Source of the DNA: a virus | IMG/VR virus record: IMGVR_UViG_3300043403_000102 | Coordinates: 18,089-82,088 of that record | Reading direction: 5' to 3' (one strand) | Length of the DNA: 64,000 bases | Part shown: positions 17,059 through 53,431 of the stretch, piece after piece | How positions within the stretch are numbered: position 1 is the stretch's first letter | Layout: each line of letters starts with the position of its first letter | The notes under the pieces: generated by a model | The model's database searches: none | The model's input: only the letters and a program-made list of their open reading frames with translations | What the model was told of the DNA's origin: nothing | Position numbers and translations under genes: made by a program

Positions 17059-17084
17059 TATTTAGGGGGCGTTCTCAAGTTTAC
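17059..17084 (-). promoter_or_regulatory. repeated promoter motif, copy 1
   Basis: On the minus strand it reads GTAAAC, 13 bases, CTAAATA(C). It lies 22 bases before the lipoprotein ATG at 17037, leaving room for an AGGAGGG ribosome site. The TAA inside CTAAATA is also the stop codon of the upstream gene. Confidence 0.7.
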
Positions 17085-17289
17085 TCCGCAGGTCAATCAC
17101 CCGGATCCAACAAGCCGCAATCCAGTACCCCGGGATTGCGGGGTACCCCCTCCCCACGGGATGAAGCTCAATTTCCCCTACGGCCCCCGCATCACAGTAC
17201 CGACGATAACGGTGGTTGTTCCCCACGTCGGCGAACCCGCACGGGGGCTTACACCCGGGGACGTGGAACTTGTCGCGTTCGTTGCTCAA
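17062..17289 (-). CDS. small cysteine-containing protein, 75 aa
   Basis: I start at TTG 17289, whose TTGA overlaps the transglycosylase stop, with AAGG upstream. The product runs MSNERDKFHVPGCKPPCGFA and contains CKPPC, YC and AAC, with His residues between, so it could bind zinc. It resembles the microproteins of 20-27 kb in size and Cys/His content but not clearly in motif order. The alternative is a longer frame from ATG 17343. Confidence 0.5.
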   Translation of the reverse strand: MSNERDKFHVPGCKPPCGFADVGNNHRYRRYCDAGAVGEIELHPVGRGYPAIPGYWIAACWIRVIDLRSKLENAP

Positions 17290-17708
17290 GTGTTCGACCT
17301 TCGATGAGCGAGCACCCGCCGCGCATAGGGGCTCGGCCTGCATCGACCCCCGTTGTATTGGGTCAGGGCATGCAACTCGACCCCCTCGCACACGTCGAGT
17401 GCCCTCTTCAAGAGGCGCATCCCGCACCGCACATTGAGGCGCAGGTTGCGCAGACCCCCTCGCTCGGCCCGGCAATACTCGATGGCTCGCCCGCTGGGGG
17501 CCACCTGCATCACGCCAAGCTCCCCGCGCTTGCCGACGACGTCCTGTCGATAGGCGCTTTCATGGGCCGCCACCATGATGGCCAGGTCGGCGGGTACCCC
17601 TATGCGCGTGGCCTCGGTGAGGATGATGGGCGCCAGCACGCGCACCCTTGCTATGGGTGCTCGCGGCGACGCCGTCAGCATCATGGCTATGATTCCTGCG
17701 ATGGTCAT
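17286..17708 (-). CDS. lytic transglycosylase (SLT-like)
   Basis: 140 residues with a hydrophobic N-terminus (TIAGIIAMMLTASP) that could be a signal or anchor. The goose-lysozyme/SLT fold is visible: LAIMVAAHESAYR (catalytic Glu), GKRGELGVMQVAP and HALTQYNGG. Several cysteines may form disulfides. It would cleave peptidoglycan, either as a second lysis enzyme or during entry or assembly. It lies beside two lipoprotein genes, some 35 kb from the amidase. Confidence 0.8.
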   Translation of the reverse strand: MTIAGIIAMMLTASPRAPIARVRVLAPIILTEATRIGVPADLAIMVAAHESAYRQDVVGKRGELGVMQVAPSGRAIEYCRAERGGLRNLRLNVRCGMRLLKRALDVCEGVELHALTQYNGGRCRPSPYARRVLAHRRSNT

Positions 17709-17734
17709 GGTCGCGTCAGTCTACAACGCATAAC

Positions 17735-18451
17735 TCATCGCCGCGAAAAGCTCATGTCCCAAACGTTGTGAACGATGTTCCGCTTCCAGTCCCAGATCGA
17801 AACCTGCTTAAGCCCCTTCGAGGTGAAGTGCGACAGCATGCAGTCTTTGGGGAATGGCTCGTCGCTGAAGCACAAACGTCCATTCAGGAAGTCGACCCCC
17901 GCTTTAGGGAACACGAGGTCGCGTGCCCAGTTGGACCCCGTCGATGAAGGAGTGAGCAAGAGGATCTCGGCCCCCTGCTCGGCCTCCTCCGCGCAACGCT
18001 TGGCCCAAGTAGGGGTGTCGTTGAACTCGCAGTTCAGCCACAGCAGACCCCCTATCTTGTGCCAGGGCCACGCGAAGGCATCGAAGCCCTCGGCCTTGGG
18101 GTCGGAGTTTTGGATCGTGTATTCGATCTTGACCTCGCGCCCTAGGCGGTGGTTCTTGGTGTTGTCCTCGATGGCACGCATGACGAAGGACGACGCATCG
18201 GCATTCGATGCCCCCTTAGTGACGAGGGCCTCGCCTATGGTCACAATCTCGGCGGTCGTGCATTCCCCGGATACCAGCGTCTCGGTGAACTCCTTGGGCG
18301 CGAAATACCGCGACGACTGCGTGTTCCCTGCATGCGCAGCGAGGTCGAAGCTGATGGGGCCGTACCGCGCGGTGACGGCAGCCATGAGGTTGTCAGGGGT
18401 GCGATAGTCCTGCTTGGACTTCACACCACTTGTGATACGTGGGCCGCTCAT
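17735..18451 (-). CDS. phage Dam-like N6-adenine methyltransferase, altered motif
   Basis: 238 residues resembling the phage DNA_N-6-adenine methyltransferase family: QDYRTPDNLMAAV, ISFDLAAHAGN, then LLWLNCEFNDTPTWAKRC, EILLLTPSSTGSNW and NGRLCFSDE. In the family the WLN is followed by PPY; here it is CEF, so the catalytic loop is changed and activity may be lost or altered. The protein otherwise spans the full domain. ATGA overlap couples it to the gene upstream. Confidence 0.75.
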   Translation of the reverse strand: MSGPRITSGVKSKQDYRTPDNLMAAVTARYGPISFDLAAHAGNTQSSRYFAPKEFTETLVSGECTTAEIVTIGEALVTKGASNADASSFVMRAIEDNTKNHRLGREVKIEYTIQNSDPKAEGFDAFAWPWHKIGGLLWLNCEFNDTPTWAKRCAEEAEQGAEILLLTPSSTGSNWARDLVFPKAGVDFLNGRLCFSDEPFPKDCMLSHFTSKGLKQVSIWDWKRNIVHNVWDMSFSRR

Positions 18452-18771
18452 GTTCTCACCTTCCTCACCTTCCTATGCGGTTCCGGTTTTTGCTTGAACG
18501 ACCACCACTCGGCGCCGTCGTACTCACTCCGTTCGAGCCACCAATTACTGCCGACAATCACAAGCGCTGCAGGGACCTCTTGAGAACCATGCCCAGGGTA
18601 ATACGAAGCAAAGTGGGTCTCGGCGTAGGCAACGAAGCCCGCCCAATCACACGTTTTAAGCTCCAGGGCGCCGCCAACGGCCTGGAAAAACTCGATGTCC
18701 TCTGGAGTTTTTCCGTACTCCTTAAGAGCCCTAATCGTTTCGAATAACAAGTTCTCCCTGCGCTCGCTCAC
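18448..18771 (-). CDS. hypothetical protein, about 107 aa
   Basis: I place the start at GTG 18771 (SERRENLLFETIRAL), coupled by GTGA to the small gene upstream. The product has an N-terminal helix and a C-terminal beta part with many Trp/Tyr (AALVIVGSNWWLERSEYDGAEWW) and a basic end. The layout resembles a small nucleic-acid-associated protein, but no family is recognised. Confidence 0.55.
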   Translation of the reverse strand: MSERRENLLFETIRALKEYGKTPEDIEFFQAVGGALELKTCDWAGFVAYAETHFASYYPGHGSQEVPAALVIVGSNWWLERSEYDGAEWWSFKQKPEPHRKVRKVRT

Positions 18772-19605: not shown

Positions 19606-19880
19606 CAGAACCCCGCCCCCGCGACGACAAAGATCCTATCTTGCCCGCAGACGTTGTTCCCAGACACTTCGCGGATCTCCTTCAGCTCCACTAGCCTGTC
19701 GAGCAAGGCCATGAAATAAAAGCGGTCTCCCGACCCAACGGTGTTAGAGACGACGTGGTACCCGTTAAAGGCCCCCGCAATACGCGAGGCTTTGTACGTG
19801 GCTTTGAGAACTTTAATAACGTCGCGCTGGCCGTTGTCGTCGAGCACTCGAGAACGCTCGGTCTGGTATGAATAAGGCAT
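19605..19880 (-). CDS. hypothetical protein, 91 aa
   Basis: Starts MPYSYQTERSRVLDDNG at ATG 19880, overlapping the stop of the gene upstream (TGATG). The pattern DVIKVLKATYKASRIAG, then FYFMALLDRLVELKEIREV looks like a winged-helix fold: three helices and a beta hairpin. A DNA-binding or modulating role is possible but unproven. Confidence 0.5.
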   Translation of the reverse strand: MPYSYQTERSRVLDDNGQRDVIKVLKATYKASRIAGAFNGYHVVSNTVGSGDRFYFMALLDRLVELKEIREVSGNNVCGQDRIFVVAGAGF

Positions 19881-20203
19881 CACGCGATCTCATCGGCGGG
19901 CGTGGCGGCGGCAATCGCAGCTTGCTCGGCCTTCATGGCGGCCCTGAACTGCTTCATCGCTTCGACGATGGTGACGACGACCTGCGCATGATGGGATTGG
20001 ATCCCCGTCGTAAGCGTGTCGCTCAGGGTGAGCATCGCCGCCACACGTCCCACCGAGGGCTCGACGGTGCTTATAAGATGCATGCACTGGTCGAGGAACC
20101 CAAGGTAATCGCGCACGACCTCCTCGACGGCATCTGGGGGCATATCGGGGATGTTGTGCTGAAGGGCGGACTCGAACAAGGCGACCATGGCTGATTTGCT
20201 CAT
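19880..20203 (-). CDS. hypothetical helical protein, operon leader
   Basis: 107 residues, MSKSAMVALFESALQHN..., almost entirely helical, with Ala/Val-rich heptads toward the C-terminus. It is the first gene after promoter copy 2: the TAAATAC box ends five bases before the ATG and no Shine-Dalgarno sequence fits between. The first three residues MSK are shared with the gene at 21880-22476, which has an identical start context. Confidence 0.55.
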   Translation of the reverse strand: MSKSAMVALFESALQHNIPDMPPDAVEEVVRDYLGFLDQCMHLISTVEPSVGRVAAMLTLSDTLTTGIQSHHAQVVVTIVEAMKQFRAAMKAEQAAIAAATPADEIA

Positions 20204-20209: not shown

Positions 20210-20235
20210 TATTTAGGGCGCCCCCTCGGGTTTAC
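20210..20235 (-). promoter_or_regulatory. repeated promoter motif, copy 2
   Basis: GTAAAC-N13-CTAAATAC on the minus strand, directly abutting the ATG at 20203 with only CAGGC between. If the box works as a -10 element, the transcript would begin at or next to the start codon. Confidence 0.7.
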
Positions 20236-21879: not shown

Positions 21880-22476
21880 TCAGCAGGAGCAGGAGAAGAA
21901 GTTACCTCGGTCGGGGCCGACGTTCGCGCCCGTATAGATCGCGTAGTGCTCCCAGAAGTCATCACGCACTCGGTGCCCTTCCCAACGACCGCCGTCACTC
22001 AGGTAGTGGTCGTGAGCTAGGTACATGTCAGCCGCGTGCATGAACTCCTTAAGGTCGAGGCCTGCGGCTTCGGCCTCCTCGACCATCACGGCCCCCGCGC
22101 GCAGGAAGCGATCGCGGCTCTCGCTGTCCTCGACTGGGGGTGAGTCAATCTGGGGGTGCGACCACACGTGGCGCAGGGACGTGATCTTGCGGGGTAGGAC
22201 CACGAACCAGAAGTGCTCGCCTGGATCTACGTGGCGCGGAATGAAGGGGTCCACGATACCAAGGGCGTCGGCGGCATCGACGCACGCCACTGCGTCTATC
22301 CCGTTGCTCTGAAGGGTGACGTGCTGACCTCGCTGCAACCGATGAGCCGCACGGGCAGGAAGTACGGCGAGGTGGATGGCATCGCGTTTCTCCTTGTCGG
22401 TGATAATGGTCCCTAGGGTTTCGAGGGCGTCGGTGGAGACACTGCGCTTGTCGGCGCTCTTGGTTGGCTTGCTCAT
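21880..22476 (-). CDS. conserved phage hypothetical protein, 198 aa
   Basis: Acidic protein. Recognisable blocks are KRDAIHLAVLPARAAHRLQRGQHVTL, DALGIVDPFIPRHVDPGEHFW and PRKITSLRHVWSHPQ, followed by a helical part and the ending NFFSCSC. I believe similar proteins occur in other large phages without assigned function. The start is fixed by promoter copy 3, whose box ends five bases before the ATG. Confidence 0.65.
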   Translation of the reverse strand: MSKPTKSADKRSVSTDALETLGTIITDKEKRDAIHLAVLPARAAHRLQRGQHVTLQSNGIDAVACVDAADALGIVDPFIPRHVDPGEHFWFVVLPRKITSLRHVWSHPQIDSPPVEDSESRDRFLRAGAVMVEEAEAAGLDLKEFMHAADMYLAHDHYLSDGGRWEGHRVRDDFWEHYAIYTGANVGPDRGNFFSCSC

Positions 22477-22482: not shown

Positions 22483-22508
22483 TATTTAGGGCAACTATTC
22501 GGGTTTAC
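22483..22508 (-). promoter_or_regulatory. repeated promoter motif, copy 3
   Basis: GTAAAC-N13-CTAAATAC, followed by CAGGC and the ATG at 22476. The context is identical to copy 2 for more than ten bases around the start, and the first codons (MSK) are shared too. The motif overlaps the end of the upstream gene. Confidence 0.7.
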
Positions 22509-23582: not shown

Positions 23583-23818
23583 GTGATCTGCCCTGGTATC
23601 CGTTCACCGACTACCACGCGCGCGCAGTCAGGGCACATCTGGTCGGAGGCGTTGACCGTGTTTGGGTACGAACAGACCCAGCGCGATGGAATAAGCACCC
23701 CGCACTTCGAGCGAAAGAAGTGCCCTTCCATCGCCGGGATGGCGATGTCGGCGTAGTGGTAGACCTCGGCCATGTTCGCCGTCATTAACGACACTCGAAA
23801 GTCTTGGTTGGTGATCAT
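23573..23818 (-). CDS. zinc-ribbon microprotein, array member 4
   Basis: 81 residues from ATG 23818. It begins MITNQDFRVSLMTANMAEVYHY, then FRSKCGVLIPSRWVC and QMCPDCARVVVGERI. SKCG replaces TLCG; the other positions are kept. Coupled by ATGA to the gene upstream. Confidence 0.65.
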   Translation of the reverse strand: MITNQDFRVSLMTANMAEVYHYADIAIPAMEGHFFRSKCGVLIPSRWVCSYPNTVNASDQMCPDCARVVVGERIPGQITWP

Positions 23819-24090
23819 AAACCTCTGCCCACAAGCCCGCCCATCAGGATGCTGTAACACAGGGGGCAGATTAGGTCGGCCAAGATCCTGTCCTTCGATT
23901 TAATCCAGGGGCCCCTAGGCACGTACGCTTCACACCAGGCCCTATAGAACGCTTGGCCCTCGTCGTTGTACATGGCAGGGTAGCCCATCCAGATGTGGAC
24001 GACCTGAGCCAACTCGGCTTCCATCGTGAACTTGACGGCGTCGAAGTCCGCGATGGCTTGGGTGGAGTACTTAGGTGGTGGCGAGCCCAT
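23815..24090 (-). CDS. zinc-ribbon microprotein, array member 5 (operon leader)
   Basis: 91 residues, MGSPPPKYSTQAIADFDAV..., with VVHIWMG, FYRAWCEAYVPRGPW and LICPLCYSIL. It is a divergent member: WCEAYVP in place of LCGDVVP. It is the first gene behind promoter copy 4, with five bases between the box and its ATG. Confidence 0.6.
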   Translation of the reverse strand: MGSPPPKYSTQAIADFDAVKFTMEAELAQVVHIWMGYPAMYNDEGQAFYRAWCEAYVPRGPWIKSKDRILADLICPLCYSILMGGLVGRGL

Positions 24091-24096: not shown

Positions 24097-24122
24097 TATT
24101 TAGGGCAGCCATTCAGGTTTAC
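24097..24122 (-). promoter_or_regulatory. repeated promoter motif, copy 4
   Basis: GTAAAC-N13-CTAAATAC in the middle of the microprotein array, ending close before ATG 24090. The TAA of GTAAAC is the stop codon of the upstream array gene at 24119-24364. Confidence 0.7.
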
Positions 24123-25250: not shown

Positions 25251-25480
25251 CCGCCCACCGGGTCCTGCCTCTTTATCACCCCGTGAAGGGCCAGGCATTC
25301 GAGGCAGGCGGGCGCTGGCATGATCCACGGGTTGAACTCGGAGAACCACTGAGCCGGGACGTAGTCCCTGCATAGCGTCTCTATGAGGGGGGCTGTGCAG
25401 GCTCGGCCCGGGTACCTCCTGAGATGCTTAACCCCGTTAAGGGCCGCCCGCATAATACCCGCCTGCACCTCCTTGGTCAT
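25247..25480 (-). CDS. zinc-ribbon microprotein, array member 11
   Basis: 77 residues, MTKEVQAGIMRAALNGVKHL..., then IETLCRDYVPAQWFSE and PACLECLALHG. TLCRD replaces TLCGD. Its start overlaps the stop of the terminase ATPase gene by four bases, so the array is translationally coupled to a packaging gene. Confidence 0.7.
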   Translation of the reverse strand: MTKEVQAGIMRAALNGVKHLRRYPGRACTAPLIETLCRDYVPAQWFSEFNPWIMPAPACLECLALHGVIKRQDPVGG

Positions 25481-26337
25481 CCGCCCACCAGCTTGAACGG
25501 TGCGGTCTGAGGCCCCCCAACGAGCGGGTACGAGATAGGGTCAGGCGCCCCGATGAGTTCCTGCTCGATGACGTCGCACCCCTGGGATACGCGCTGGATG
25601 AGCGTGCACCAGCCGGGGCGCTGCATAAGGTGATGGGTGGCGTCGTCCAGGTGCCAGGGCGTCCCGATGTACAGCACGCGGGCGTCGGGCTCTAGGCGGC
25701 TCAACCACGTGCTCTCGATGAACTGAAGGACCTTGGACCGCTGGGTGGAGTCGAAGCTGTTCTTCTGGTCGACGACGTCGTCAAAGATCATGATGTCCGC
25801 TCGTCCACCCACGCCCGTCGTGAGGATGCCTCGGGCGTGAATGCTCGGGTCGATGGCCCCGCCCGTACGCTCCAAGTAGATCTCATGGCCCGCCCATTTG
25901 CGACCTCGACGGATGCCAGGGAAAATGCCCTTGAAGGCTGCGGTCTCGATGAGGGCCTTGGCCCTCTCGACTCGTTTGGTGGCGCTGCTGTCGTCGTTGG
26001 TGATGACCTTGATTCGGAGGTTCGGATCTCTACCCAGGGACCACGCGATAAGAGGCACCGCAAGCGTGGAGCTTTTACCGTGACCGAAGGGCGCCATGAT
26101 CATGGCCTTGAGTCCACGGGACCAGCAGTACTTAAGGTGAAGGATCCACTGTATGTGGATGGGGCTTAGGCGCAGTGGATGGCCGTGGTCGTCCTGGACC
26201 ACACGCTCGATGAACAGACCGAGGTCCCCCTTGGCTGCGTCGGAGGCGCGGGCCATCGTTGCATACATCAGCAGGAGCTTGCGCCGCTGGGCCAGGGGCA
26301 ACATGTCCGCGATGGTCGTTGTGGTCGTCTCAGCCAT
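25477..26337 (-). CDS. terL: large terminase, ATPase half (split TerL)
   Basis: 286 residues. Walker A is APFGHGKSS at 82-90, Walker B is IMIFDD at 182-187, and the coupling motif is YIGTPWH at 223-229. An N-terminal helical region with LRLSPIHIQWI resembles the adenine-binding area of terminases. The protein ends at residue 286, where the nuclease domain would begin; the missing nuclease is at 11187-11960. No intein residues are visible at the C-terminus (ends PFKLVGG). TerS lies upstream, as expected. Confidence 0.9.
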   Translation of the reverse strand: MAETTTTTIADMLPLAQRRKLLLMYATMARASDAAKGDLGLFIERVVQDDHGHPLRLSPIHIQWILHLKYCWSRGLKAMIMAPFGHGKSSTLAVPLIAWSLGRDPNLRIKVITNDDSSATKRVERAKALIETAAFKGIFPGIRRGRKWAGHEIYLERTGGAIDPSIHARGILTTGVGGRADIMIFDDVVDQKNSFDSTQRSKVLQFIESTWLSRLEPDARVLYIGTPWHLDDATHHLMQRPGWCTLIQRVSQGCDVIEQELIGAPDPISYPLVGGPQTAPFKLVGG

Positions 26338-26551: not shown

Positions 26552-26782
26552 TTACTCGGCCTCCCGCATGCGTGCCCATGTATCGTCGGGGTTGGCGTCA
26601 ACGAGCATGCGCCATGCTTTGCAGGCGGGACAGTTGACGACGCGTGTGTGCAACCTGGGCGTCTTGTCCGAAGCACACTTCGCGTACTTAAACGTCGACC
26701 ACCACGTACCATCGCTCACGCGGCACTTGTCACTAAAGCAAGGACCCTGCAGGTAATGGATAATCAGTACGCTAAACGGCAT
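26552..26782 (-). CDS. microprotein array, subtype B member 2
   Basis: 76 residues, MPFSVLIIHYLQGPCFSD..., then WWSTFKYAKCASD and NCPACKAWRMLV. It follows the subtype B pattern closely. The C-terminal tail is acidic and longer than in member 1. Confidence 0.65.
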   Translation of the reverse strand: MPFSVLIIHYLQGPCFSDKCRVSDGTWWSTFKYAKCASDKTPRLHTRVVNCPACKAWRMLVDANPDDTWARMREAE

Positions 26783-26999
26783 GGCTCAGGGCCTCCCACA
26801 TCGCGCAAGCAGGGCACATCTCGTCGTCACCCATAGTCCCAGCGCGAGCAACCCACGCCTCCCACATCTTCGGGAACATGTGATCGTAGTTCTTTAAATG
26901 GTAGTGGCTGCTGTGCTGGGTAAACGTCGGCGTGCCCTCGGGGCAAACACAAGGGCCGTCCACGTAGTGAGCAAGGCGTACCAAATCGAAGGCGCTCAT
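26772..26999 (-). CDS. microprotein array, subtype B member 3 (operon leader)
   Basis: 75 residues from ATG 26999 (MSAFDLVRLAHYVDGPC); GTG 27002 is an alternative. It has CVCPEG, MWEAWVA and EMCPACAMWEAL. It is the first gene behind promoter copy 5, with six bases between box and ATG and no ribosome site. Confidence 0.65.
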   Translation of the reverse strand: MSAFDLVRLAHYVDGPCVCPEGTPTFTQHSSHYHLKNYDHMFPKMWEAWVARAGTMGDDEMCPACAMWEALSHAV

Positions 27000-27006: not shown

Positions 27007-27032
27007 TATTTAGGGCCGGGCGTTCGGGTTAC
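27007..27032 (-). promoter_or_regulatory. repeated promoter motif, copy 5 (variant)
   Basis: GTAACC in place of GTAAAC, then 13 bases and CTAAATAC. It ends a few bases before the start at 26999/27002. This is the weakest upstream half of the nine copies. Confidence 0.6.
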
Positions 27033-35360: not shown

Positions 35361-35386
35361 TATTTAGGGGCGCCAGTTTGGTTTAC
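35361..35386 (-). promoter_or_regulatory. repeated promoter motif, copy 6
   Basis: GTAAAC-N13-CTAAATA, then six bases (TCTAAC) and ATG 35354. It drives the SSB end of the recombination cluster if functional. Confidence 0.7.
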
Positions 35387-37965: not shown

Positions 37966-37967
37966 CG

Positions 37968-38626: not shown

Positions 38627-38653
38627 TATTTAGGGAAGGGGTCCGGGGTTTAC
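38627..38653 (-). promoter_or_regulatory. repeated promoter motif, copy 7 (14-base spacer)
   Basis: GTAAAC-N14-CTAAATAC, the only copy with a 14-base spacer. It lies 39 bases before ATG 38588, leaving room for a ribosome site (AAGGACC). The TAA of GTAAAC is the primase stop. Confidence 0.65.
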
Positions 38654-39501: not shown

Positions 39502-40835
39502 AGGGCACCTTCCTCGTCAGCCGTGAGCGCCTGACCCCCGCGAATGAACTGCCCATAGGCGAAGCCATTGTGGTACGGGCCGACGACCGCCCCGCTTTGA
39601 GCATACCGGCACCACCCGACGTTCAACCTTACGAGGCCGTTCTGTCGCTCCTCCTCGGTGCCGCAGATGGCGATACCAACGTCCGAGATCGCAGCCTTCA
39701 TGAAGCTGTCCGCGATGTCCGCCATCGACACGACCTCCTTCGATAAGCTGTCTCGCTTAGCCCACGACGCCGTCCAAAAGCGCGTGCGGTACTTCACGGC
39801 AAGGCCTCGAAGCTCGGAGTACACCCCGCCGAGCGCCCCGTACTTGTTGTCAAAGGACCCTAGGCTTTGCATAAGGTCGCCCGAGTCCACGATGACCACG
39901 GTGGGTTCAAGCCCACGTTCGGCACGCAACATCTGGAGATGCTCGTCGATGTCCTTGGCCGTGGTGCTGTAGCTAGGGAACTGCTTGATGACGAGACAGC
40001 CCCCCATCGTGTTGACGAAGTCCATGACCTTCGAGTTAACGAAGTCGGCGCGCTTGTTCAGCTCGTCGATGAGCACGTCGGCGATGGACGCGTCGATGCG
40101 ATCGATAAGGTCCGACTCGCTCATCTCAAGGCTGTAGTACACGACGGTGCCCCCGCACTCCATCGTGTACTTTGCGATATGTCCCAGCAGTTGGCTCTTG
40201 CCGAACTTGGGGGCCCCGAGGATGGTGCCGAGTTCACCGGCAGCCAGGCCCCCACGGATCATGTCGTCAAGGTCCGAAATACCGGTACCCAGACGAGGGG
40301 GGCGCTTGTTGAGGCGCCGTGCCTCGGTACGGGTTTCGAGGTCGCCTAGGTAGTCCGCGCCCATGCTGATGTCGACGAGACCGATGCTGGCGGCCTTGTC
40401 GATCTTGGCGCGGATGGCCTCGTAATCCCCGCGCGGAAGGATGGCGAGGGATTCGTTCATGGCGTTCCACATCGCCACCTTGCGGGCCTCGCCTAGGAAG
40501 GCCTCTTGGACAAATAGGCCGTCCGCTCGTGGGATCTCCTCGGCGTACTCGAAAGCCTGGGACGCGCCGATGAGTTGGTCGTTGGTGACCTTGCCCGAGT
40601 TTACCCGTGCGCGGATGTCCTGAAGGACGACGATGCTAGTCGGGGGTTTGTTGTGGCGCTTGTACAGGGCAACGGCGGACTCGACGATGAGTTGAAGCTC
40701 AGGCTTCCCCATACGAGCTGGTGCCAAGAACGGAGCCACACGCTGGAACAAGAGGGGGTCTGCGAAGAACTGATAGATGGACGCATACTGGAAGTCGACT
40801 TCAAAGGGATAGGGCTCGGTTGAGGGTGCGGGCAC
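39498..40835 (-). CDS. dnaB: replicative DNA helicase, DnaB-like
   Basis: 445 residues from GTG 40835, which overlaps the upstream gene by 35 bases. Residues 1-140 are a helical N-domain; the RecA-like motor has Walker A GAPKFGKSQ, VVYYSLEMSESDLIDR, and Walker B TVVIVDSGDLMQS. The C-terminal region ends AQSGAVVGPYHNG..., a shortened linker. It works with the primase downstream. The GTG start and 35-base overlap are unusual but no better start is visible. Confidence 0.9.
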   Translation of the reverse strand: MPAPSTEPYPFEVDFQYASIYQFFADPLLFQRVAPFLAPARMGKPELQLIVESAVALYKRHNKPPTSIVVLQDIRARVNSGKVTNDQLIGASQAFEYAEEIPRADGLFVQEAFLGEARKVAMWNAMNESLAILPRGDYEAIRAKIDKAASIGLVDISMGADYLGDLETRTEARRLNKRPPRLGTGISDLDDMIRGGLAAGELGTILGAPKFGKSQLLGHIAKYTMECGGTVVYYSLEMSESDLIDRIDASIADVLIDELNKRADFVNSKVMDFVNTMGGCLVIKQFPSYSTTAKDIDEHLQMLRAERGLEPTVVIVDSGDLMQSLGSFDNKYGALGGVYSELRGLAVKYRTRFWTASWAKRDSLSKEVVSMADIADSFMKAAISDVGIAICGTEEERQNGLVRLNVGWCRYAQSGAVVGPYHNGFAYGQFIRGGQALTADEEGAL

Positions 40836-41331
40836 TTTCGATCCATTCTCGCCACTGGCGGCGTCGGTCGGCCTTAGACTGGTACGTTAACGGAGCAAGC
40901 ACTTCACCGGAACGTTGCCGATAATAAGGCAACCAACAAATCACCGCCTTCAAACTGATAACCTCGCTGCGATAAGGGGTGCGCCCCTTCAACTGACGCA
41001 TGCGGCGCATGACAAAGGTGACGTAAGCGTCGAAGCTGACACGAGCCCGTATAATGAGCACCGCTGCCGTCGAATAGGCAGCGCGTTGGTTTTCCGTGAT
41101 GATCGAACGGGTGTTAGGCTTGGTAAGCAGGTTGCGCTCGTAGGCGACGAGCAACCTATCGACGGCCGAGTCAAGGTTGATGAACCCGTTCGGTAGGTTG
41201 TCAGGCCGCTTGATCTCATCACGAGACACGGCATCCATGGGGGGTGGTGCAACCCATTCACCGGGGCACAGAGCACCCAGCGATCTACCTATGCGCTTGT
41301 CGTTCGTCCATATGGGGGGTCGTCGCTGCAT
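40801..41331 (-). CDS. replication-module hypothetical protein, 176 aa
   Basis: MQRRPPIWTNDKRIGRS..., basic and helical (FINLDSAVDRLLVAYERNLLTK; FDAYVTFVMRRMRQLKGRTPYRSEVIS). It overlaps the helicase gene, so the two are probably co-expressed; a helicase loader or regulator is possible but there is no ATPase motif. Promoter copy 8 and a GAGAGGACCA leader lie upstream. Confidence 0.55.
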   Translation of the reverse strand: MQRRPPIWTNDKRIGRSLGALCPGEWVAPPPMDAVSRDEIKRPDNLPNGFINLDSAVDRLLVAYERNLLTKPNTRSIITENQRAAYSTAAVLIIRARVSFDAYVTFVMRRMRQLKGRTPYRSEVISLKAVICWLPYYRQRSGEVLAPLTYQSKADRRRQWREWIESARTLNRALSL

Positions 41332-41347: not shown

Positions 41348-41373
41348 TATTTAGATTGAGGTGGTTGGTTTAC
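41348..41373 (-). promoter_or_regulatory. repeated promoter motif, copy 8
   Basis: GTAAAC-N13-CTAAATA, followed by the leader GAGAGGACCA and ATG 41331. This is the only site where the promoter motif and a variant of the GAAAGGACCA leader occur together. CTAAATA includes the stop of the gene at 41351-41713. Confidence 0.7.
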
Positions 41374-41713: not shown

Positions 41714-41759
41714 CAATTACCCCTCTCTTTCCTGCTTTGAATACACCCCGGCCTTTCCA

Positions 41760-42553
41760 CCCCTTTGACATTCCCTTGTGCTGTAACCCAGCAGGGGAGA
41801 CGTCACGTCTGGTGTAGATGCCTTGCGTCTGAAAGAGTGAATGATCTACTGCTGCTAACTCAGGTCGTACTAGCTGCGAGGCTTAGCAAGGAGATCTCCT
41901 ATATCGACCCTGATGGTTGAACACGTCGGGGGCACTTCCGTTCCCCGTGCTTGCCATATCTTCAATCCATCGAAGGTCTTCGATGAGGGTCCCCCCTCAT
42001 CAGGCGATCTCAACGCGGCCGACGCTATGCTGTACAGCGTGGGTGGTTGAGGCAATTTTTGTCAATTGGACGCTTAAGTCTCTGACAGTAGATCAAAGCG
42101 ACTCGCTTTGTGCTGTTCGATCTCGCTATATGGCCAAGGACCGCGAGCTTGAGGTCGTGTCCCTCTGGAAGCCGCTTGCCCATCTACATCCTCCCGTCGC
42201 CCGGACTGCTCCGCCGTAACATCATTCTCTGTCGATCTTGAATCCGTACCTAGGTCGCAGTCGGTTGACGCTGCGACAAACTGCTTACGGTGATGCACTC
42301 GACATGAAGTTTGATGCCACCTCGTGGCGGTAGAAACGGTGCCCCTTTGAAAGCCAAGGCATGTAGTTGCACTTCACTAGCGTTGAGATCGGTTTTGTTT
42401 GTCAACCAGCATCAGTTGTCGTATTCTGCGAAAGCTCGGTTAACAACCGAGGGCAGCATCTGAGATTGGTTTCTTTGTGGTGATTGTTTCCCTCTCTTGG
42501 CTGCTGTTGAGCCCCCACCGAGTTCGAGCTCGGCTGGGGGCTTTTCCTTTTTC
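41760..42553 (+). ncRNA. candidate large structured RNA
   Basis: No gene on either strand explains this 0.9 kb gap. It contains many inverted repeats: CATCGAA/TTCGATG, GATGAGGG/CCCTCATC (sharing GATG with the former, so they may compete), AAAGCG/CGCTTT, GTCGCAG/CTGCGAC, CTCGGTT/AACCGAG and a palindrome GAGATCTC. The stretch ends with a plus-strand intrinsic terminator. All genes nearby run the other way, so a plus-strand RNA is implied. Size is in the range of the large phage RNAs GOLLD and ROOL, but I cannot match a family. The 5' end is not defined. A replication origin is the alternative. Confidence 0.5.
42511..42553 (+). terminator. intrinsic terminator on plus strand
   Basis: GCCCCCACCGAG pairs with CTCGG-c-TGGGGGC across a TTCGAG loop: 12 base pairs with one bulge. 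TTTTCCTTTTT follows on the plus strand only; the minus strand lacks a T-run. It would terminate a plus-strand transcript from the gene-free stretch. Confidence 0.85.
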
Positions 42554-42635
42554 AAGGAAGCTCCGGGGTTAATGATGCGCGGCAATTATTACCTCTGGTC
42601 CAGGCCCGAGGGGTAGGAAATTTTTCAGCCTGTTT

Positions 42636-44831: not shown

Positions 44832-45488
44832 TCAACTTTCTTGTGGTTGGGGGAAACGACGGCACAACTCAAGCAGCCCGCTTTCGAGGGTGGTACCATA
44901 CCGCAGGGCGGTGGCTTTGATCTCGTCGCGGTCTTCGGCCGCGTCCAGCACGAGCCGCAGGGCGTATCGTTTCTGGTTGGTCATCGAGGCCTCCTCGGTT
45001 TGGAGGCCCCCGCCCTCGCCGTAGGCCCCGGGCCCCAGGTCGTCGAAGGTGTTGGTCTGGGCCAGGTCCTTGAGCATCAGCTCGATGTCCCCGCCCGAGA
45101 ACCCCGTCAGCGTGAGGTCGGGGAACTTGAGGTCGCTCAGATCTTTGAGCACCAGCGCGGCCTTGGCTAGGTCGGTGGTCCCACGCAGACGATTCAGCGA
45201 CAGCATCGCCGCCGCGGCCTGGGGGTCTTCGAGGTGGTCCGCAATCAACACGGGGATCTCTTTGAGCCCTGCGGCCTGGGCAGCACGGAATCGATGGTGC
45301 CCGTCGACCAGCACGAACCCATCATTGCCCGTGCGCACGGTCACCGGTTGGATAAATCCGAGCTTGGCGATGGCGTTCGTCAACATCTCGAACTCCGACG
45401 GGTCCATCGCGTTGGGGTTGATGCCTGGGTTCTCCTGTATCGCGGTGACCTTGAGATACTTCAGTTGGGGCTTCGGGGCTGCGGTCAT
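44832..45488 (-). CDS. ParB-like nuclease/CTPase-type protein
   Basis: 218 residues from ATG 45488, overlapping the sigma-like stop (ATGA). It has the ParB/Srx core: GFIQPVTVRTGNDGFVLVDGHHRFRAAQAAGLKEIPVLIADH, then AMLSLNRLRGTTD. The C-terminal half is helical with GFSGGDIELMLKDLAQ and an HTH-like segment. No methyltransferase is fused here. It could bind DNA near the origin or regulate genes. Confidence 0.75.
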   Translation of the reverse strand: MTAAPKPQLKYLKVTAIQENPGINPNAMDPSEFEMLTNAIAKLGFIQPVTVRTGNDGFVLVDGHHRFRAAQAAGLKEIPVLIADHLEDPQAAAAMLSLNRLRGTTDLAKAALVLKDLSDLKFPDLTLTGFSGGDIELMLKDLAQTNTFDDLGPGAYGEGGGLQTEEASMTNQKRYALRLVLDAAEDRDEIKATALRYGTTLESGLLELCRRFPQPQES

Positions 45489-46099
45489 GGTCTCAGATCC
45501 TCCAGGGTGCCTAGTTCGTTCAGTTCTTCGTACAGATTCCAAAGCTCCACGTCCGAGCGCAAGGCCTCCTTCACTTGGCTGCACATCCGGTAGAACTGCC
45601 TCGTGGTGACACCGAGTTGCTCGGCCCGCTCTTGAGACGCCCCGTTGTAGACGTCGGCGAGCGTGTGCTCTCGAACGACCGCACGCGCCTGCTCGGGTAC
45701 CTGCTCTAGGGCATTGTCGAGTAGGCGGTGGAACTTGCGACGCGCGTCCCTAAGGGCCTGCGTGCGTTCGACGTTCAACGCGGCGACCTCGGGCGTGGAC
45801 CCCTCGTCATCGAGCCAGCCCTCGGCCGCGTCTAGGTCGACCGCGTGCTTGATGCCCCTCGCGGCTTCCCAGTTGTCATGTATCGAATACGGACAGATCG
45901 TCCGCGCGACAAAGTTCCCCAGCTCCCTGCTCACGGCCACGTACGTGTATCCGGGGGCCTTGATGCCCTTGTCCCAAGTCGACAGAGCAATCCGCCATGC
46001 CTCCTGCTGCAGGTCCTCGGCATCGACGTTGTAGTATTTACGCTGAGCGTTCTTGATGACGTCGCGCATGACTTTGGCCTGCTCGCTTGTAATTTCCAT
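45485..46099 (-). CDS. phage-encoded RNA polymerase sigma factor
   Basis: 204 residues. Region 2 is visible at about 25-65 (VDAEDLQQEAWRIALSTWD and GYTYVAVSRELGNFVAR). Region 4 is at about 150-185 (LEQVPEQARAVVREHTLADVYNGASQERAEQLGVTTRQFYRMCSQV), a helix-turn-helix for the -35 element. Such a two-domain factor redirects host polymerase. The GTAAAC-N13-CTAAATA motif of this genome is the natural candidate target. A GAAGGGACCA leader precedes the gene, and a strong hairpin insulates it from the MoxR gene. Confidence 0.8.
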   Translation of the reverse strand: MEITSEQAKVMRDVIKNAQRKYYNVDAEDLQQEAWRIALSTWDKGIKAPGYTYVAVSRELGNFVARTICPYSIHDNWEAARGIKHAVDLDAAEGWLDDEGSTPEVAALNVERTQALRDARRKFHRLLDNALEQVPEQARAVVREHTLADVYNGASQERAEQLGVTTRQFYRMCSQVKEALRSDVELWNLYEELNELGTLEDLRP

Positions 46100-46135
46100 C
46101 GCCGTTGGTCCCTTCGAAAGTGAGAGTGAGAAACT

Positions 46136-46177
46136 ATATAGAGCCGGGGGAGAAAGTAAATACCCCCGGCTCTATAT
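46136..46177 (-). terminator. hairpin between MoxR and sigma genes
   Basis: Perfect 15-base arms, ATATAGAGCCGGGGG at 46136-46150 and its complement at 46163-46177, around a 12-base loop. It lies between the MoxR stop (46189) and the sigma start (46099). A weak T-rich tail follows on the minus strand. Confidence 0.75.
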
Positions 46178-46188
46178 TCGACTGATGC

Positions 46189-47334
46189 TTAGGGCATGAT
46201 GCCTGCGGTCCTAAAGATCGGCTCGAGCTGATACAGGACCTTCGTCGCCGCCGAACCCTTGGACAGCTTCGCCCGGCATAGGAGCTTGGCCGCAGGGAAC
46301 ACCAGGTCCGCCGAAGTCTCGACGGATTTGATCATCAGCTCCCAGAGCTTGTCGGCCCGAGCGTCGCGCTTGGCTGCGTTCGTCGGGATGACCAGGGCTG
46401 CGCACCCTTGGTACACGGCCAGCGTGCGATCGAGGCGCTTGTCGGGCTTCCAAGTCGTTTTGCCGTCGAGAAGCTCCTCGAAGTCGGGTAGGTCGGCAGC
46501 CTCGCAGTAAACCAGAAACTCGGAGGCTGCTCCCTCTCCCACGCAGCCGCTTAGCAGTTGCTGCGCCTCGATGGTACCTAGGCCGTGGATTGCGCCGCCC
46601 GCGATGGCCCGGGTGGCGACCTCCCAAGTGCGCAGCGAGGCCCACGCCTTCGACGCGTTCGGGTCTTCGGGCTTCGGGGTCTTGCGCAGCAGCTCGGGCC
46701 GCCGCGAGATGAACCCCGTGGTCAGGCCCGTGGCATTCGCGTAGGCAACCGGCCACTTAGCCATGACCATCTCCTCCAACGCTTCGGGGTCAGCGTTGCC
46801 CCCGATGGCCGCGCTCCCCGCGCCGCCGATCATGTAATCAATCCAATCGGTGTGACTCGGGGCATCCCAGCGCCAGTGAATGAACCGGTTTGCCATCGGC
46901 ATCGGAAGGTCGGTGCCGTCGGCCGACATCTCGACGGGGTTCTGAGAGGCCAGGATGCGCACCCTGCGATTGAGCTTGGTCTCACCGATCACCCGCTCGA
47001 ACACCACCCGAAGCAAGGCCTTCTGAACCATGGCAGGGGCCGTGTTGAACTCGTCGAAGTGGATCACGCCACCCCCTGCCGTGTTCAGCCGCGTGGCATA
47101 GGCCGGGGGCAGATACGAAAGCGCCCCCTTCTCGACCCAGGGCATCCCGAGGAAGTCCGATGGTTCGCGCAGGGACGCGATGACGGTCTCGCACAGGAGA
47201 CCGAGCTCGCCGCAGGTGCGTTCGACTACCGAGCTCTTGGCGGTACCGGGCTCGCCGGTGAACAAGGTCGGGAGTCCCCAGCCGTGAGGGCCTGGCGTGA
47301 AGAGAACGGTCTTGAGCATTGCTGATAGGTTCAT
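46189..47334 (-). CDS. MoxR-type AAA+ ATPase
   Basis: 381 residues. Walker A is TGEPGTAKSS, Walker B is GGVIHFDEFNTAP, then sensor I RILASQNPVE and PMPMANRFIHW. The C-terminal part is helical and acidic. MoxR ATPases act as chaperones with VWA-domain partners; the next gene upstream (47369-48628) is a VWA protein, so the pair is standard. A GAAAGGACCA leader precedes it. Confidence 0.88.
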   Translation of the reverse strand: MNLSAMLKTVLFTPGPHGWGLPTLFTGEPGTAKSSVVERTCGELGLLCETVIASLREPSDFLGMPWVEKGALSYLPPAYATRLNTAGGGVIHFDEFNTAPAMVQKALLRVVFERVIGETKLNRRVRILASQNPVEMSADGTDLPMPMANRFIHWRWDAPSHTDWIDYMIGGAGSAAIGGNADPEALEEMVMAKWPVAYANATGLTTGFISRRPELLRKTPKPEDPNASKAWASLRTWEVATRAIAGGAIHGLGTIEAQQLLSGCVGEGAASEFLVYCEAADLPDFEELLDGKTTWKPDKRLDRTLAVYQGCAALVIPTNAAKRDARADKLWELMIKSVETSADLVFPAAKLLCRAKLSKGSAATKVLYQLEPIFRTAGIMP

Positions 47335-47342
47335 GGTGTGAT

Positions 47343-47353
47343 GGTCCTTTCGA
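47343..47353 (-). promoter_or_regulatory. conserved TCGAAAGGACC leader, MoxR gene
   Basis: Reads TCGAAAGGACC on the minus strand, eight bases before ATG 47334. It includes a Shine-Dalgarno core (AAAGGA) plus conserved flanks. It is complementary to the loop of the structured RNA at 33885-34010. Confidence 0.65.
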
Positions 47354-47368
47354 TTCAGGTCTGTGACG

Positions 47369-48628
47369 TCAGTCGTTGTCGATGTGGATGATTTGACCCC
47401 AGCTAAGGGGTCCAGCAGTCGTATGCGGCAATGGCGCGTTCTTTCCGCAGAGCACCCAGATCACCCGGATGCCGGGTGGGGGTGTTGCGGGGGCCTCGCC
47501 CGCGCCGTCGGTCAAGAACACGAACAGCGGTGGCTTGGGCTTCATACGTTCGACGGCATCGAACGCGGGGACGAAGCTGGTGCCCCCACCGCCCTTGAAG
47601 GCCTTGAGGAAGTCGAGGGCCGACTTGATCTTGCCGTTGTGGTGAACCTCCGAGTCGCAGGCAATGAACTGCACCGCCGCCCGCACGCTCTTGAGGATGC
47701 CGTCAATCTCGGAGGCGGCGAGCTTGAGGGCCTCGCCGAGCATGCTGCCCGAGGTATCGAGACCCACGCACACCTGAGGCAAGGGCGCGCGTATCGCCGG
47801 GATGATGATCTGCCCGTCTCGACCGCTGAACATCGCCTGCCGTCGGCTGCGATGTTGATAGGTGTAGTCCTTCATGCCGATTTGAGCCGCTACGCCCGAT
47901 CGGATGGCTCGGCGCAGTTGGTCCTCCCAGCGAATCTTGGGGGGCGCGAGATGCTCCTCCGCCCATATGCGCAGGCCAAGGGGCACCGACCCTTCGCCCT
48001 TGGTCCGGGTTTCCGCCTCGATGGCCGATGCCACTTGATTGCGTATGCGCTGCAGATCCGCTTCGCTGCGCCCCTCGCTGGCGGTTCCGTCGGCATCCTC
48101 GGGGGATTCCCCGGGGAGGGGCGCGCCCCCGCTGCCCGATCCATCCATGCCCCCGGCTGCCGTCGGCTTTGACGGGGCCCCCTTGAGGTTCCCGTCTTCG
48201 TCGAGTTTCTTCATCAACTCGTGGTAGTAGGTCTCGGCCAGCAGCCCGTTCTTGAGGCCGAATGTTTTGGGCCAGCAGCCATTCGTGGGCAGGGGCACGT
48301 TGGCCTCGGAGAGGTCATCGTTGATCTCGCAGTCGGCCGCTACGTTCCAGATCTTGGGCTCTGCCGCCATCGTCTTGGCCCGTGATGCGTGCGACCGGAT
48401 GCTGTGGTTCGCCTCGTGCAGCAGCACCCCCGAGACCTGCTCAAGGGGCAACGTCGATATCCATTCAGGATCCCACATAAGCACGCCGCTTCGGGTGACT
48501 CCCATCGTACCCAGGCCGGGCGTCTCTCGGGGAATGAGCCCCATCACGGCGGCCTGCATATAAGGCATGTATTTGCGGGTCATCATGCGCGCGATTGCCA
48601 TCATCTGCTCGGGCGAGAACGTCGTCAT
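47369..48628 (-). CDS. VWA-domain protein with metallopeptidase-like N-terminus
   Basis: 419 residues from ATG 48628, overlapping the upstream stop. Residues 1-150 resemble a DUF2201-type zincin-like domain with VLLHEANHSIRSH (HExxH). A Gly/Ser-rich linker at 150-190 follows, then a VWA domain with MIDAS motif VGLDTSGSM and TDGAGE. It is the partner of the MoxR ATPase. The pair could act in remodelling a host or phage protein complex; the substrate is unknown. Confidence 0.85.
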   Translation of the reverse strand: MTTFSPEQMMAIARMMTRKYMPYMQAAVMGLIPRETPGLGTMGVTRSGVLMWDPEWISTLPLEQVSGVLLHEANHSIRSHASRAKTMAAEPKIWNVAADCEINDDLSEANVPLPTNGCWPKTFGLKNGLLAETYYHELMKKLDEDGNLKGAPSKPTAAGGMDGSGSGGAPLPGESPEDADGTASEGRSEADLQRIRNQVASAIEAETRTKGEGSVPLGLRIWAEEHLAPPKIRWEDQLRRAIRSGVAAQIGMKDYTYQHRSRRQAMFSGRDGQIIIPAIRAPLPQVCVGLDTSGSMLGEALKLAASEIDGILKSVRAAVQFIACDSEVHHNGKIKSALDFLKAFKGGGGTSFVPAFDAVERMKPKPPLFVFLTDGAGEAPATPPPGIRVIWVLCGKNAPLPHTTAGPLSWGQIIHIDND

Positions 48629-48861
48629 CAAAGCACCTCAAGCCCGGCGTTCCGAACCCACTCGATGTAGCTCGCCAGGTTGATGAGGGTGGTGTTGACG
48701 TCGGTGCCGATCGTCTTGTACGCGATGACTTCACTACCTCCCTCGGCCATCAGCTCACCCACGCACGGGGTTCCCGGGTAGACGACGAACTTACGTTCGC
48801 TCTCTAACAAGATCGCCTGCGCCTCTTCCAACTTCATGTGCCGTCGTGTTGCCATGTTCAC
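48628..48861 (-). CDS. small hypothetical protein, 75-77 aa
   Basis: Start at GTG 48861 (overlapping the previous stop, GTGA) or ATG 48855 (MATRRHMKLEEAQAIL). The rest is alpha/beta with FVVYPGTPCVGELMAEG and a helical C-terminus. It lies inside the MoxR/VWA operon. Function unknown. Confidence 0.55.
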   Translation of the reverse strand: MNMATRRHMKLEEAQAILLESERKFVVYPGTPCVGELMAEGGSEVIAYKTIGTDVNTTLINLASYIEWVRNAGLEVL

Positions 48862-51681: not shown

Positions 51682-51692
51682 AGTCCTTTCGA
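51682..51692 (-). promoter_or_regulatory. TCGAAAGGACT leader, gene 51674
   Basis: One base from the consensus (T for C at the end), upstream of ATG 51674. It shares the CGAA flank with the copy at 50792. Confidence 0.6.
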
Positions 51693-51703
51693 TTCGGGAA
51701 CAA

Positions 51704-51772: not shown

Positions 51773-52188
51773 CTTACAGAATTTATTTCAGCGGGGGTGC
51801 TCGGTGTCCGGGGGAATACTGACGGACCGTGCCGCCATCATCTCAGGAGCCGGTGCAGCGCGCTTTGGTTGCGCTCCCCTGCCTATCTGTCCATGTTCGT
51901 CTGCCGTCTCGCGTCCGCTCCCCTGTGGGGCCTGGGGACCTTTGGGGTCCTTGGGTTTGGGCCTGGCTCCTAGCGGGGTCTGTTACGTCCGCCCTGGGGC
52001 TGCCTACCGGTTTCGCGCTGGCCTGGTTTTCAGAGAGCGTCGGGGAGGAAGTTCTTTCGAGCCACCCGTCCTGACAAGAACAATACTAGGGGATAAATAG
52101 AGAATAGGCAATAAATAATAACGGGAAAAGAACATAGCTCCGCTAACTACGCGTAATCACGAGGCAATTAGGCGCAACTTTTTTCGAC
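51773..52188. other. gene-free stretch with AT-rich tract
   Basis: About 415 bases with no convincing gene on either strand. The right half (52080-52160) is AT-rich for this genome and contains repeated TAAATA-like tracts (GATAAATAG, CAATAAATAATAA). It could hold promoters for the transcription unit to the left or a regulatory region; I see no copy of the GTAAAC-N13-CTAAATA motif. Plus-strand frames here are low-complexity and lack ribosome sites. Confidence 0.4.
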
Positions 52189-52227
52189 GGGAACTGCGGC
52201 CCGCGACAATGGGGGGCCGCAGTTCCC
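52189..52227 (-). terminator. 14-base perfect hairpin after amidase gene
   Basis: GGGAACTGCGGCCC (52189-52202) pairs perfectly with GGGCCGCAGTTCCC (52214-52227). It follows the amidase stop at 52243 on the minus strand. The next bases on that strand are GTCGAAAAAA, not T-rich, so termination would be atypical; it may instead protect the 3' end. Confidence 0.65.
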
Positions 52228-52242
52228 CGCAGCGCGCGGCCC

Positions 52243-52902
52243 CTATACCCGGGACCAGTCGAACCAGGGCGCGGCCCTCAGGGCCCCCGGATCCCAACCC
52301 CCGCCGCCACCCCACCGGGATAGGGGGGACAGATCCTCGTGCCCGAACACAGGCAGGCCAGAAATTAACCAGCGCCTCTGAATATCGGCCACGAGCGCCG
52401 CCACCGTCCGATATTGCGCCTCGGTATAGAGGGAGCCCGTCGAATCGATTCCCTGCAGCGGAACCAACTCGACCCCTACCCCTACTTGGTTGGGGCTCCC
52501 CGTGCGCAGAAGGCCCGCAGGGTTGTTGGCGGGGCCGTGGGCCCTGTCCCACGCCGCGAGGCCCGCAGGGCTCAGGCCCTTGCGCCAGGAGCCGTCTCGG
52601 TAGGACGCAGCTTCTTGGGGCGATACGCGGCAGTGCCAGGCCATCTCGGTCTCGTTGGCCACCTGCCACAGCACCCCATCGAGGTCGATCACGTAGTGCG
52701 CGAAGTTCGACTCAGGGTCCTGGTACTCTCCGAGCACGGCCTCGATGACGGGCTTGTTGAGCTTCTTGGCGAGGTCGTAGACCCCGCGTCCCGTGGTGTG
52801 CACGACGAGCGCCTCGGGTTCGGGGCGCGGGCGATCTTTCACGTCGCGCATGTGCCCGACTACGCGGGCGAGGGATGACAGGCCTCTAGGGTCGTTGCTC
52901 AC
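52243..52902 (-). CDS. N-acetylmuramoyl-L-alanine amidase (endolysin)
   Basis: 219 residues from GTG 52902, whose GTGA overlaps the resolvase stop. The amidase_2 zinc site is visible: LVVHTTGRG (first His), EMAWHCRV and VFGHEDLSPLSRW (later His). NFAHYVIDLDGVLWQV and VGVGVELVP are typical strands. It has no signal peptide, so it needs the holin candidate at 53428-53679. It cleaves the amide link between glycan and peptide. Confidence 0.87.
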   Translation of the reverse strand: MSNDPRGLSSLARVVGHMRDVKDRPRPEPEALVVHTTGRGVYDLAKKLNKPVIEAVLGEYQDPESNFAHYVIDLDGVLWQVANETEMAWHCRVSPQEAASYRDGSWRKGLSPAGLAAWDRAHGPANNPAGLLRTGSPNQVGVGVELVPLQGIDSTGSLYTEAQYRTVAALVADIQRRWLISGLPVFGHEDLSPLSRWGGGGGWDPGALRAAPWFDWSRV

Positions 52903-53399
52903 GCACTGATTCTGCGCCCGTACTCCGCGATGAGCAAGGCGTCGGCCCAGCCGTCCTTCAGCCCGCCCTTGGGGCCTCGGAGGTTGACCCCGGGGAACAA
53001 CTGCCCCGCAATGTGCGCGGCTTGCTCTTTGCGCGCCTTTGTACCGTCTGCCTTGGGCATGCCCTTCATGAGCAACGCACGCCACGTCTGCGGGGCCACC
53101 TGAACGTAAGGGATGCGCAGCACCGAGAGCATGCCTATCCAAAGACCCCCGCCATACCCGATGCTGTGGGCGCTGACGACTCCCTCGCCGGGCCGAACAC
53201 CCGTGCGCTCGATGACGACGACGGCCTCCCCTAAGCGATGGATCGTTTCCAGCATTGTGACCATGCCGCGCAGATCATATTCCCGCTTCGTCGTCGTGGT
53301 TCCCAGCGTGGGGGTTGACGATATGAGCGGCACACCACTTGGTGACAGAGACACCACCGCGCCGCTCTTGCCTGGGTCGATACCGACATAAGTCTTCAT
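52899..53399 (-). CDS. RuvC-like Holliday junction resolvase
   Basis: 166 residues. The RNase H-like start is YVGIDPGKSGAVV (catalytic Asp), then VVIERTGV (Glu), and DGWADALLIAEYGRR (C-terminal acidic pair). It resembles phage RuvC-like nucleases that cut branched DNA before packaging. It is the first gene after promoter copy 9 and is joined to the amidase by GTGA overlap. Confidence 0.85.
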   Translation of the reverse strand: MKTYVGIDPGKSGAVVSLSPSGVPLISSTPTLGTTTTKREYDLRGMVTMLETIHRLGEAVVVIERTGVRPGEGVVSAHSIGYGGGLWIGMLSVLRIPYVQVAPQTWRALLMKGMPKADGTKARKEQAAHIAGQLFPGVNLRGPKGGLKDGWADALLIAEYGRRISA

Positions 53400-53405
53400 C
53401 CCCCG

Positions 53406-53431
53406 TATTTAGGGGGAAGGTAGTGGTTTAC
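53406..53431 (-). promoter_or_regulatory. repeated promoter motif, copy 9
   Basis: GTAAAC-N13-CTAAATAC, then GGGGG and ATG 53399. It would drive the resolvase and amidase. The TAA of GTAAAC is the stop of the holin-like gene. Confidence 0.7.

What the first reader, a model, noticed from the sequence alone, without database searches (positions are those of the whole stretch)
17059..53431. Nine-copy GTAAAC-N13-CTAAATA motif, candidate regulon of a phage sigma factor
Nine copies on the minus strand (17059, 20210, 22483, 24097, 27007, 35361, 38627, 41348, 53406) keep GTAAAC and CTAAATA with a fixed 13-base gap in eight of nine. Each lies just before a gene that starts a run of co-directional genes. 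The spacing is too short for a standard -35/-10 pair, and the sequence is not the host consensus. The phage encodes a sigma-like protein (45485-46099), which is the obvious reader. The sites are absent from 1-17 kb and 54-64 kb (structural genes), which suggests an early or middle class.
Basis: partly seen in the sequence, partly recalled or inferred. Interest (0 to 1): 0.8.

Follow-up and report, generated by a model that had tools for sequence, protein, structure and literature searches.

The report
Phage sigma-factor promoters, mostly leaderless
A bacterial virus known only from metagenomes carries nine near-identical two-part start signals in front of its gene blocks and its own sigma-type factor that probably reads them; a distant cousin virus has the same layout with a changed first half, and most signals sit so close to the start codon that the messages should begin with it.

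Summary
The nine minus-strand sites are the only CTAAATA in the whole 82-kb viral record. Each has GTAAAC (GTAACC once) 13 bases upstream (14 once) and lies 6-38 nt before a start codon; no intermediate-scoring site exists. The best reading is a promoter: GTAAAC-N12-CCTAAA(TA). In six sites the start codon comes 6-7 nt after the -10 box with no Shine-Dalgarno sequence, so these mRNAs should be leaderless. The three sites set further back have Shine-Dalgarno leaders.

Independent support: in a collinear cousin phage (IMG/VR 3300049923_000074) an unbiased search finds AAAAT-N12-CCTAAA with the same spacing and the same 8 nt to ATG, partly before the same genes. That phage has a syntenic sigma homologue (26% identity). 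A third fragment keeps the site downstream of DNA polymerase.

The 45485-46099 protein is a divergent sigma-70 family factor; all five homologues used match TIGR02937, below its cut-off. No phage RNA polymerase was found. A phage sigma with bipartite promoters is a known kind (Salmonella phage 7-11 gp47, GTAAtg-N16-aCTA). The spacing, the leaderless design and the -35 divergence are new here. Transcription starts and sigma-motif recognition remain unproven; the host is unknown.

The parts
17059..17084 (-). promoter-like site GTAAAC-N13-CTAAATA; ATG 21 nt on (gene 16408-17037), with AGGAGG; opens the structural block
20210..20235 (-). site, leaderless class, ATG 6 nt on (gene 19880-20203)
22483..22508 (-). 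site, leaderless class, ATG 6 nt on (gene 21880-22476)
24097..24122 (-). site, leaderless class, ATG 6 nt on (gene 23815-24090)
27007..27032 (-). site with GTAACC, leaderless class, ATG 7 nt on (gene 26772-26999)
   Evidence: G003 site 22032 lies between the same neighbouring genes
35361..35386 (-). site, leaderless class, ATG 6 nt on (gene 34863-35354; SSB, UvsX-like, SbcD- and SbcC-like genes follow)
   Evidence: orthologous sites in G003 (30029) and L013 (1071)
38627..38653 (-). site with GTAAAC-N14-CTAAATA; ATG 38 nt on (gene 37968-38588, then DNA polymerase), with Shine-Dalgarno-like AAGG
   Evidence: orthologous G003 site 33024
41348..41373 (-). site; ATG 16 nt on (gene 40801-41331, then DnaB-like helicase and primase), with GAGAGG
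   Evidence: G003 site 37327 lies between the same neighbouring genes
53406..53431 (-). site, leaderless class, ATG 6 nt on (gene 52899-53399, RuvC-like resolvase)
45485..46099 (-). sigma-70 family protein (P0001, 204 aa, regions 2 and 4), the candidate reader of the sites
   Evidence: TIGR02937 E=4e-6, below cut-off; 5 of 5 homologues match; fold hits are sigma factors
46136..46177 (-). 15-bp hairpin just upstream of the sigma gene, possible attenuator or insulator
   Evidence: z -4.7 for 46100-46185; hairpin at the same place in G003, z -3.8
44832..45488 (-). ParB-domain gene directly downstream of the sigma gene, a syntenic neighbour in G003, G006 and G009
   Evidence: PF02195; synteny

Best explanation
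The nine sites are promoters of a phage regulon. Host core RNA polymerase carrying the phage-encoded sigma (45485-46099) recognises GTAAAC as the -35 element (sigma region 4) and CCTAAATA as the -10 element (region 2), separated so that GTAAAC-N12-CCTAAA. Transcription would start about 7 nt after the -10 element: at six sites that is the start codon itself, giving leaderless mRNAs; at three sites it leaves a 5' leader of about 10-30 nt with a Shine-Dalgarno sequence. The regulon covers replication, recombination and other middle-type genes and, through 17059, probably the structural block by read-through. The sigma gene has no site of its own and sits behind a hairpin, so it is probably first made from a host-sigma transcript. 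Shown here: motif, placement, related sites in two other phages, sigma-family identity and synteny. Inferred: transcription starts, leaderlessness, which sigma reads the sites, timing.
For: Nine sites all before starts, no intermediate scores. Unbiased rediscovery here and, separately, in the collinear cousin G003 with the same CCTAA box, same 12-base spacing and same distance to ATG. Two strict orthologous positions plus two between the same neighbours, and L013 at the 35361 position. Shine-Dalgarno absent in the 6-7 nt class and present in the longer class. Sigma-family protein, syntenic in G003. No T7-like polymerase, with a positive control. Works as in phage 7-11 (PMC8948821).
Against: No transcript ends are known. 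The sigma match is below the family cut-off and the structure model is modest (pTM 0.41, best fold E 0.025). G006 has a sigma homologue but no motif that I could find. The sigma-motif pairing rests on co-occurrence in two phages. The host and its sigma factors are unknown.
Confidence: 0.78

Rival explanations
1. The sites are promoters, but for a host alternative sigma factor (for example of the SigB/SigF, sigma-28 or sigma-32 type, which use short spacers) that the phage exploits; the phage sigma-like protein does something else.
For: Host unknown, so it cannot be excluded. The short spacer resembles group 3 sigma promoters (general knowledge). The G006 phage has the sigma homologue but no detected motif.
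Against: The sigma gene is kept in synteny.
Confidence: 0.14
2. The sites are operators or activator sites next to ordinary promoters, bound by a phage regulator other than a sigma factor.
For: Two conserved blocks with a fixed gap could bind a protein dimer.
Against: The blocks are not a palindrome or direct repeat. The fixed 6-7 nt to ATG with no Shine-Dalgarno leaves no room for another promoter downstream of the site, and no other enriched pair was found upstream of these or other genes.
Confidence: 0.05
3. The sites are translation or mRNA-processing signals rather than promoters.
For: Six of nine stand at a constant distance from ATG.
Against: Three sites stand 16-38 nt away and have Shine-Dalgarno sequences; the upstream block lies 26-32 nt before ATG; the same two-block layout with both placements recurs in G003.
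Confidence: 0.02
4. Chance or a dispersed repeat.
For: None found.
Against: Shuffles never reach it; spacer bases are not conserved, so the copies are not a duplicated repeat; placement at gene starts, and related sites in other phages.
Confidence: 0.01

Closest known systems
Salmonella phage 7-11 sigma gp47 and its eight late promoters (PMC8948821)
   Same: Phage-encoded small sigma with region 4, bipartite promoters with a GTAA -35 core and a CTA in the -10 box, spread before phage gene blocks, starts 6-9 bp after the element; a hairpin in front of the sigma gene.
   Different: Spacing about 4 bases longer there (GTAAtg-N16-aCTA); late class; the word 'leaderless' does not occur in the paper; no detectable sequence kinship beyond 31 columns of the helix-turn-helix region.
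phiEco32 sigma gp36 and its middle/late promoters (described in PMC8948821)
   Same: Phage sigma reprogramming host core polymerase at several dispersed sites.
   Different: A single element tAATGTAtA without a -35 box.
T4 gp55 late promoters (TATAAATA; general knowledge)
   Same: TAAATA core just upstream of the start.
   Different: T4 late promoters lack a -35 element and need a sliding clamp; here a second conserved block exists.
Group 3 sigma factors: sigma-28/FliA, sigma-32, SigB/SigF (general knowledge)
   Same: Short spacers; two homologues each match the SigBFG and FliA/WhiG models weakly; sigma32 and sigma28 are the first fold hits.
   Different: Element sequences differ, and the phage protein has no recognised region 3.

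Membership tests
Phage-encoded sigma regulon (the kind exemplified by 7-11 gp47) | Phage genome encodes a sigma-70 family protein | tested here: met
   TIGR02937 E=4e-6, 5 of 5 homologues match; below the curated cut-off; fold hits
Phage-encoded sigma regulon (the kind exemplified by 7-11 gp47) | Several copies of a non-host-like promoter motif before phage gene blocks | tested here: met
   Nine copies, all before starts; unlike the sigma-70 consensus, host consensus unknown
Phage-encoded sigma regulon (the kind exemplified by 7-11 gp47) | Holoenzyme with the phage sigma initiates at the motif | not testable with these tools
   Needs in vitro transcription
gp47 / gp36 sigma protein family | Sequence homology to gp47 | tested here: not met
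   hhalign aligns 31 columns at probability 1%
gp47 / gp36 sigma protein family | GTAAtg-N16-aCTA spacing | tested here: not met
   Here GTAAAC-N12-CCTAAA
TIGR02937 sigma70-ECF superfamily | Score above the curated cut-off (42.9 bits) | tested here: not met
   26.5 bits; no homologue above the cut-off either
sigma-70 family, two-domain | Regions 2 and 4 aligned in order over most of the length | tested here: met
   Residues 10-182 on model positions 10-163 of 165
T4 gp55-type late promoter | Single -10 element without a -35 element | tested here: not met
   A conserved GTAAAC block is present in all nine sites, GTAACC once
Phage single-subunit RNA polymerase promoter | Phage encodes a T7-like RNA polymerase | tested here: not met
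   PF00940 not found in the record; T7 positive control 1e-109. The record may be incomplete

The most novel reading that the evidence does not exclude
A phage sigma factor whose regulon is built mainly of leaderless genes: the promoter is fused to the start codon at a fixed distance, so switching the sigma also switches the mode of translation initiation. In related phages the sigma and the -35 element have diverged together while the -10 box, spacing and start-codon distance stayed fixed.
Probability: 0.5. Interest if true: 0.65.

Novelty: new variant of a known kind. Interest (0 to 1): 0.55.

Why it matters
It gives a sigma/promoter pair with a sharp consensus, and a natural comparison in which the -35 box changed while -10 and spacing did not. 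That makes the sigma region 4/-35 recognition code testable in a family with no close relative in the libraries searched. Leaderless phage-sigma transcripts would link transcription takeover to translation takeover. It also shows that a phage regulon can be read from metagenome contigs alone by comparing cousins.

Tried and rejected
Weaker extra sites in 82 kb: none (next weight-matrix score 13.8). Other motifs for structural genes: none above shuffles. The motif in other viral contigs: with ATG fixed, only two single hits of chance type plus the same phage; with 15 fixed bases, 59 single hits and no contig with two. A motif in G006 and G010: none convincing. Close relatives of P0001 in phage records or PDB sequences: none. 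The host through genome contigs: no usable hit. L006 and L109 are 100% identical copies of this phage and give no independent evidence. Tunturiibacter phages share a UvsX-like gene but the annotated regions show no shared gene order. T7-like polymerase: none. Rfam: none.

Full report
Observation. All nine sites were found at the stated places on the minus strand. Aligned on CTAAATA they read (R)GGTAAACC-N10/11-CCCTAAATA-C. CTAAATA occurs nine times in the 82,088-base viral record and every copy is one of these sites; the 18,088 bases outside the window have none. The 38627 copy has GTAAAC 14 bases upstream and 27007 has GTAACC, so 'fixed 13-base gap in eight of nine' is right. A weight matrix built from the nine scores them 24.6-36.2 and nothing else above 13.8. 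The dyad is never seen in 200 dinucleotide shuffles. A search for spaced word pairs in the 80 bases before all called genes, which was not given the motif, returned the same motif first (score -18.7; best of 100 shuffles -7.8).

Placement. Every site precedes a start codon. At six sites CTAAATA is followed by 6 or 7 bases and then ATG, and none of these six has a Shine-Dalgarno sequence by my simple caller. At 17059, 41348 and 38627 the ATG is 21, 16 and 38 bases away and AGGAGG, GAGAGG or AAGG is present. Overall 55 of 98 confident minus-strand genes have such a sequence. A promoter with its start about 7 bases after the -10 box explains both classes; a translation signal would not be expected to move away from ATG. 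The six transcripts would therefore be leaderless. This is inference from position, not a mapped end. Site 17059 opens the block that runs from 17037 down to the low end of the record and holds terminase nuclease, portal and tail genes; no other site lies in it, so the structural block may be read from 17059. Because 120 of 126 called genes lie on the minus strand, co-direction is not informative.

Comparison with relatives. A profile scan with the DNA polymerase gave IMG/VR contig 3300049923_000074 (G003, 42,149 bases, 53% GC; polymerase 46% identical), which is collinear with window 8.7-48.6 kb with proteins 25-70% identical. The same unbiased pair search in G003 returned AAAA-N13-CCTAA first (score -11.4; best of 100 shuffles -7.7). 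Written out, the sites are AAAAT-N12-CCTAAAG(T/C)A or AAAAT-N12-CCTAAATA: 33024, 25993, 22032, 16072, and with one change 30029, 9606 and 37327, all on the coding strand. The spacing of 12 to CCTAAA equals that in the window (GTAAAC-N12-CCTAAA), and the distance from CCTAAA to ATG is 8, 9, 8 and 8 at 25993, 22032, 16072 and 9606, as in the window's leaderless class. G003 33024 stands before the orthologue of the gene behind 38627. G003 30029 stands before the orthologue of the gene behind 35361, where the 4.7-kb contig L013 (polymerase 54% identical) also has ATAAAA-N12-CCTAATA. G003 22032 and 37327 lie between the same neighbours as 27007 and 41348; 16072 is one gene off; 25993 and 9606 have no counterpart. 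The more distant contigs I looked at, with polymerases 26-40% identical, show no such site after polymerase.

The sigma protein. P0001 (45485-46099) gives TIGR02937 sigma70-ECF E=4e-6 over residues 10-182, under that model's cut-off, and nothing in Pfam or PHROGs at 0.001. Homologues lie in G003, G006, G009 and G010; the G010 protein is the most doubtful, since a six-frame search of that record with TIGR02937 gave nothing. In G003 the order AAA ATPase - sigma - ParB is the same as here, and in G006 and G009 the homologue directly precedes the ParB gene. All five proteins match TIGR02937, best 2.3e-8, with weaker SigBFG and FliA matches. An AlphaFold2 model with five sequences (pLDDT 71, pTM 0.41) gives sigma factors or sigma-containing complexes as its first 21 PDB matches, led by sigma32 and sigma28, but with E no better than 0.025. 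No other sigma candidate was found in the record with this model; no T7-like polymerase, with T7 itself as positive control; no Rpb1-type domain either.

Sigma gene control. No site precedes the sigma gene. A 15-bp hairpin (46136-46177; -34 kcal/mol for the 86-base stretch, z -4.7) lies just upstream, and G003 has a long hairpin followed by CUUUUCUUUU at the same place (z -3.8). The stretches tested in G006 and G009 do not show one. Phage 7-11 also has a hairpin before its sigma gene, and its authors propose a role for it in sigma production (PMC8948821). I read it tentatively as an attenuator or insulator.

Known systems. In Salmonella phage 7-11 the sigma gp47 uses GTAAtg-(16)-aCTA with starts 6-9 bp away, and in phiEco32 gp36 uses a single tAATGTAtA (PMC8948821). 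The present system works like these. It is not a member of the gp47 family on the evidence: profile comparison aligns 31 columns at 1% probability, and the spacing is about 4 shorter. T4 late promoters share TAAATA but have no -35 box (general knowledge).

Limits. No transcription start is known, the host is unknown, G006 has a sigma homologue but no motif that I could find, and the pairing of sigma and motif rests on co-occurrence in two phages plus the absence of another candidate reader. Gene starts come from my own simple caller. The G003 pattern with its one-mismatch sites was extended after the unbiased search, so the weaker sites (30029, 9606, 37327) carry less weight.

Noticed in passing
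window 25477-26337 and 11187-11960: The terminase large subunit appears split: the ATPase-like part (phrog_38 positions 266-471) and the nuclease-like part (489-628) lie in two genes about 13.5 kb apart; both are likewise separate in G003.
   Followed up: partly
window 41720-42635: About 0.9 kb without a called gene just upstream of the promoter of the DnaB/primase block; a possible replication origin or regulatory region, with no clear iterons.
   Followed up: partly
window 12196-14706: An 836-aa protein in the packaging/structural region carries a match to the iron/manganese superoxide dismutase C-terminal domain (PF02777, 4e-16).
   Followed up: no
window 35392-38001: The DNA polymerase A has an N-terminal uracil-DNA glycosylase superfamily match (PF03167, 1.4e-8).
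   Followed up: no
window 46189-48631: A MoxR-like AAA ATPase next to a DUF2201 putative metallopeptidase/VWA protein, directly upstream of the sigma gene and kept in G003.
   Followed up: no
window 17-54 kb, upstream regions of genes without a site: An extended ribosome-binding box ATCGAAAGGACCA is enriched (5 genes, score -8.2 against -4.5 in a shuffle).
   Followed up: no
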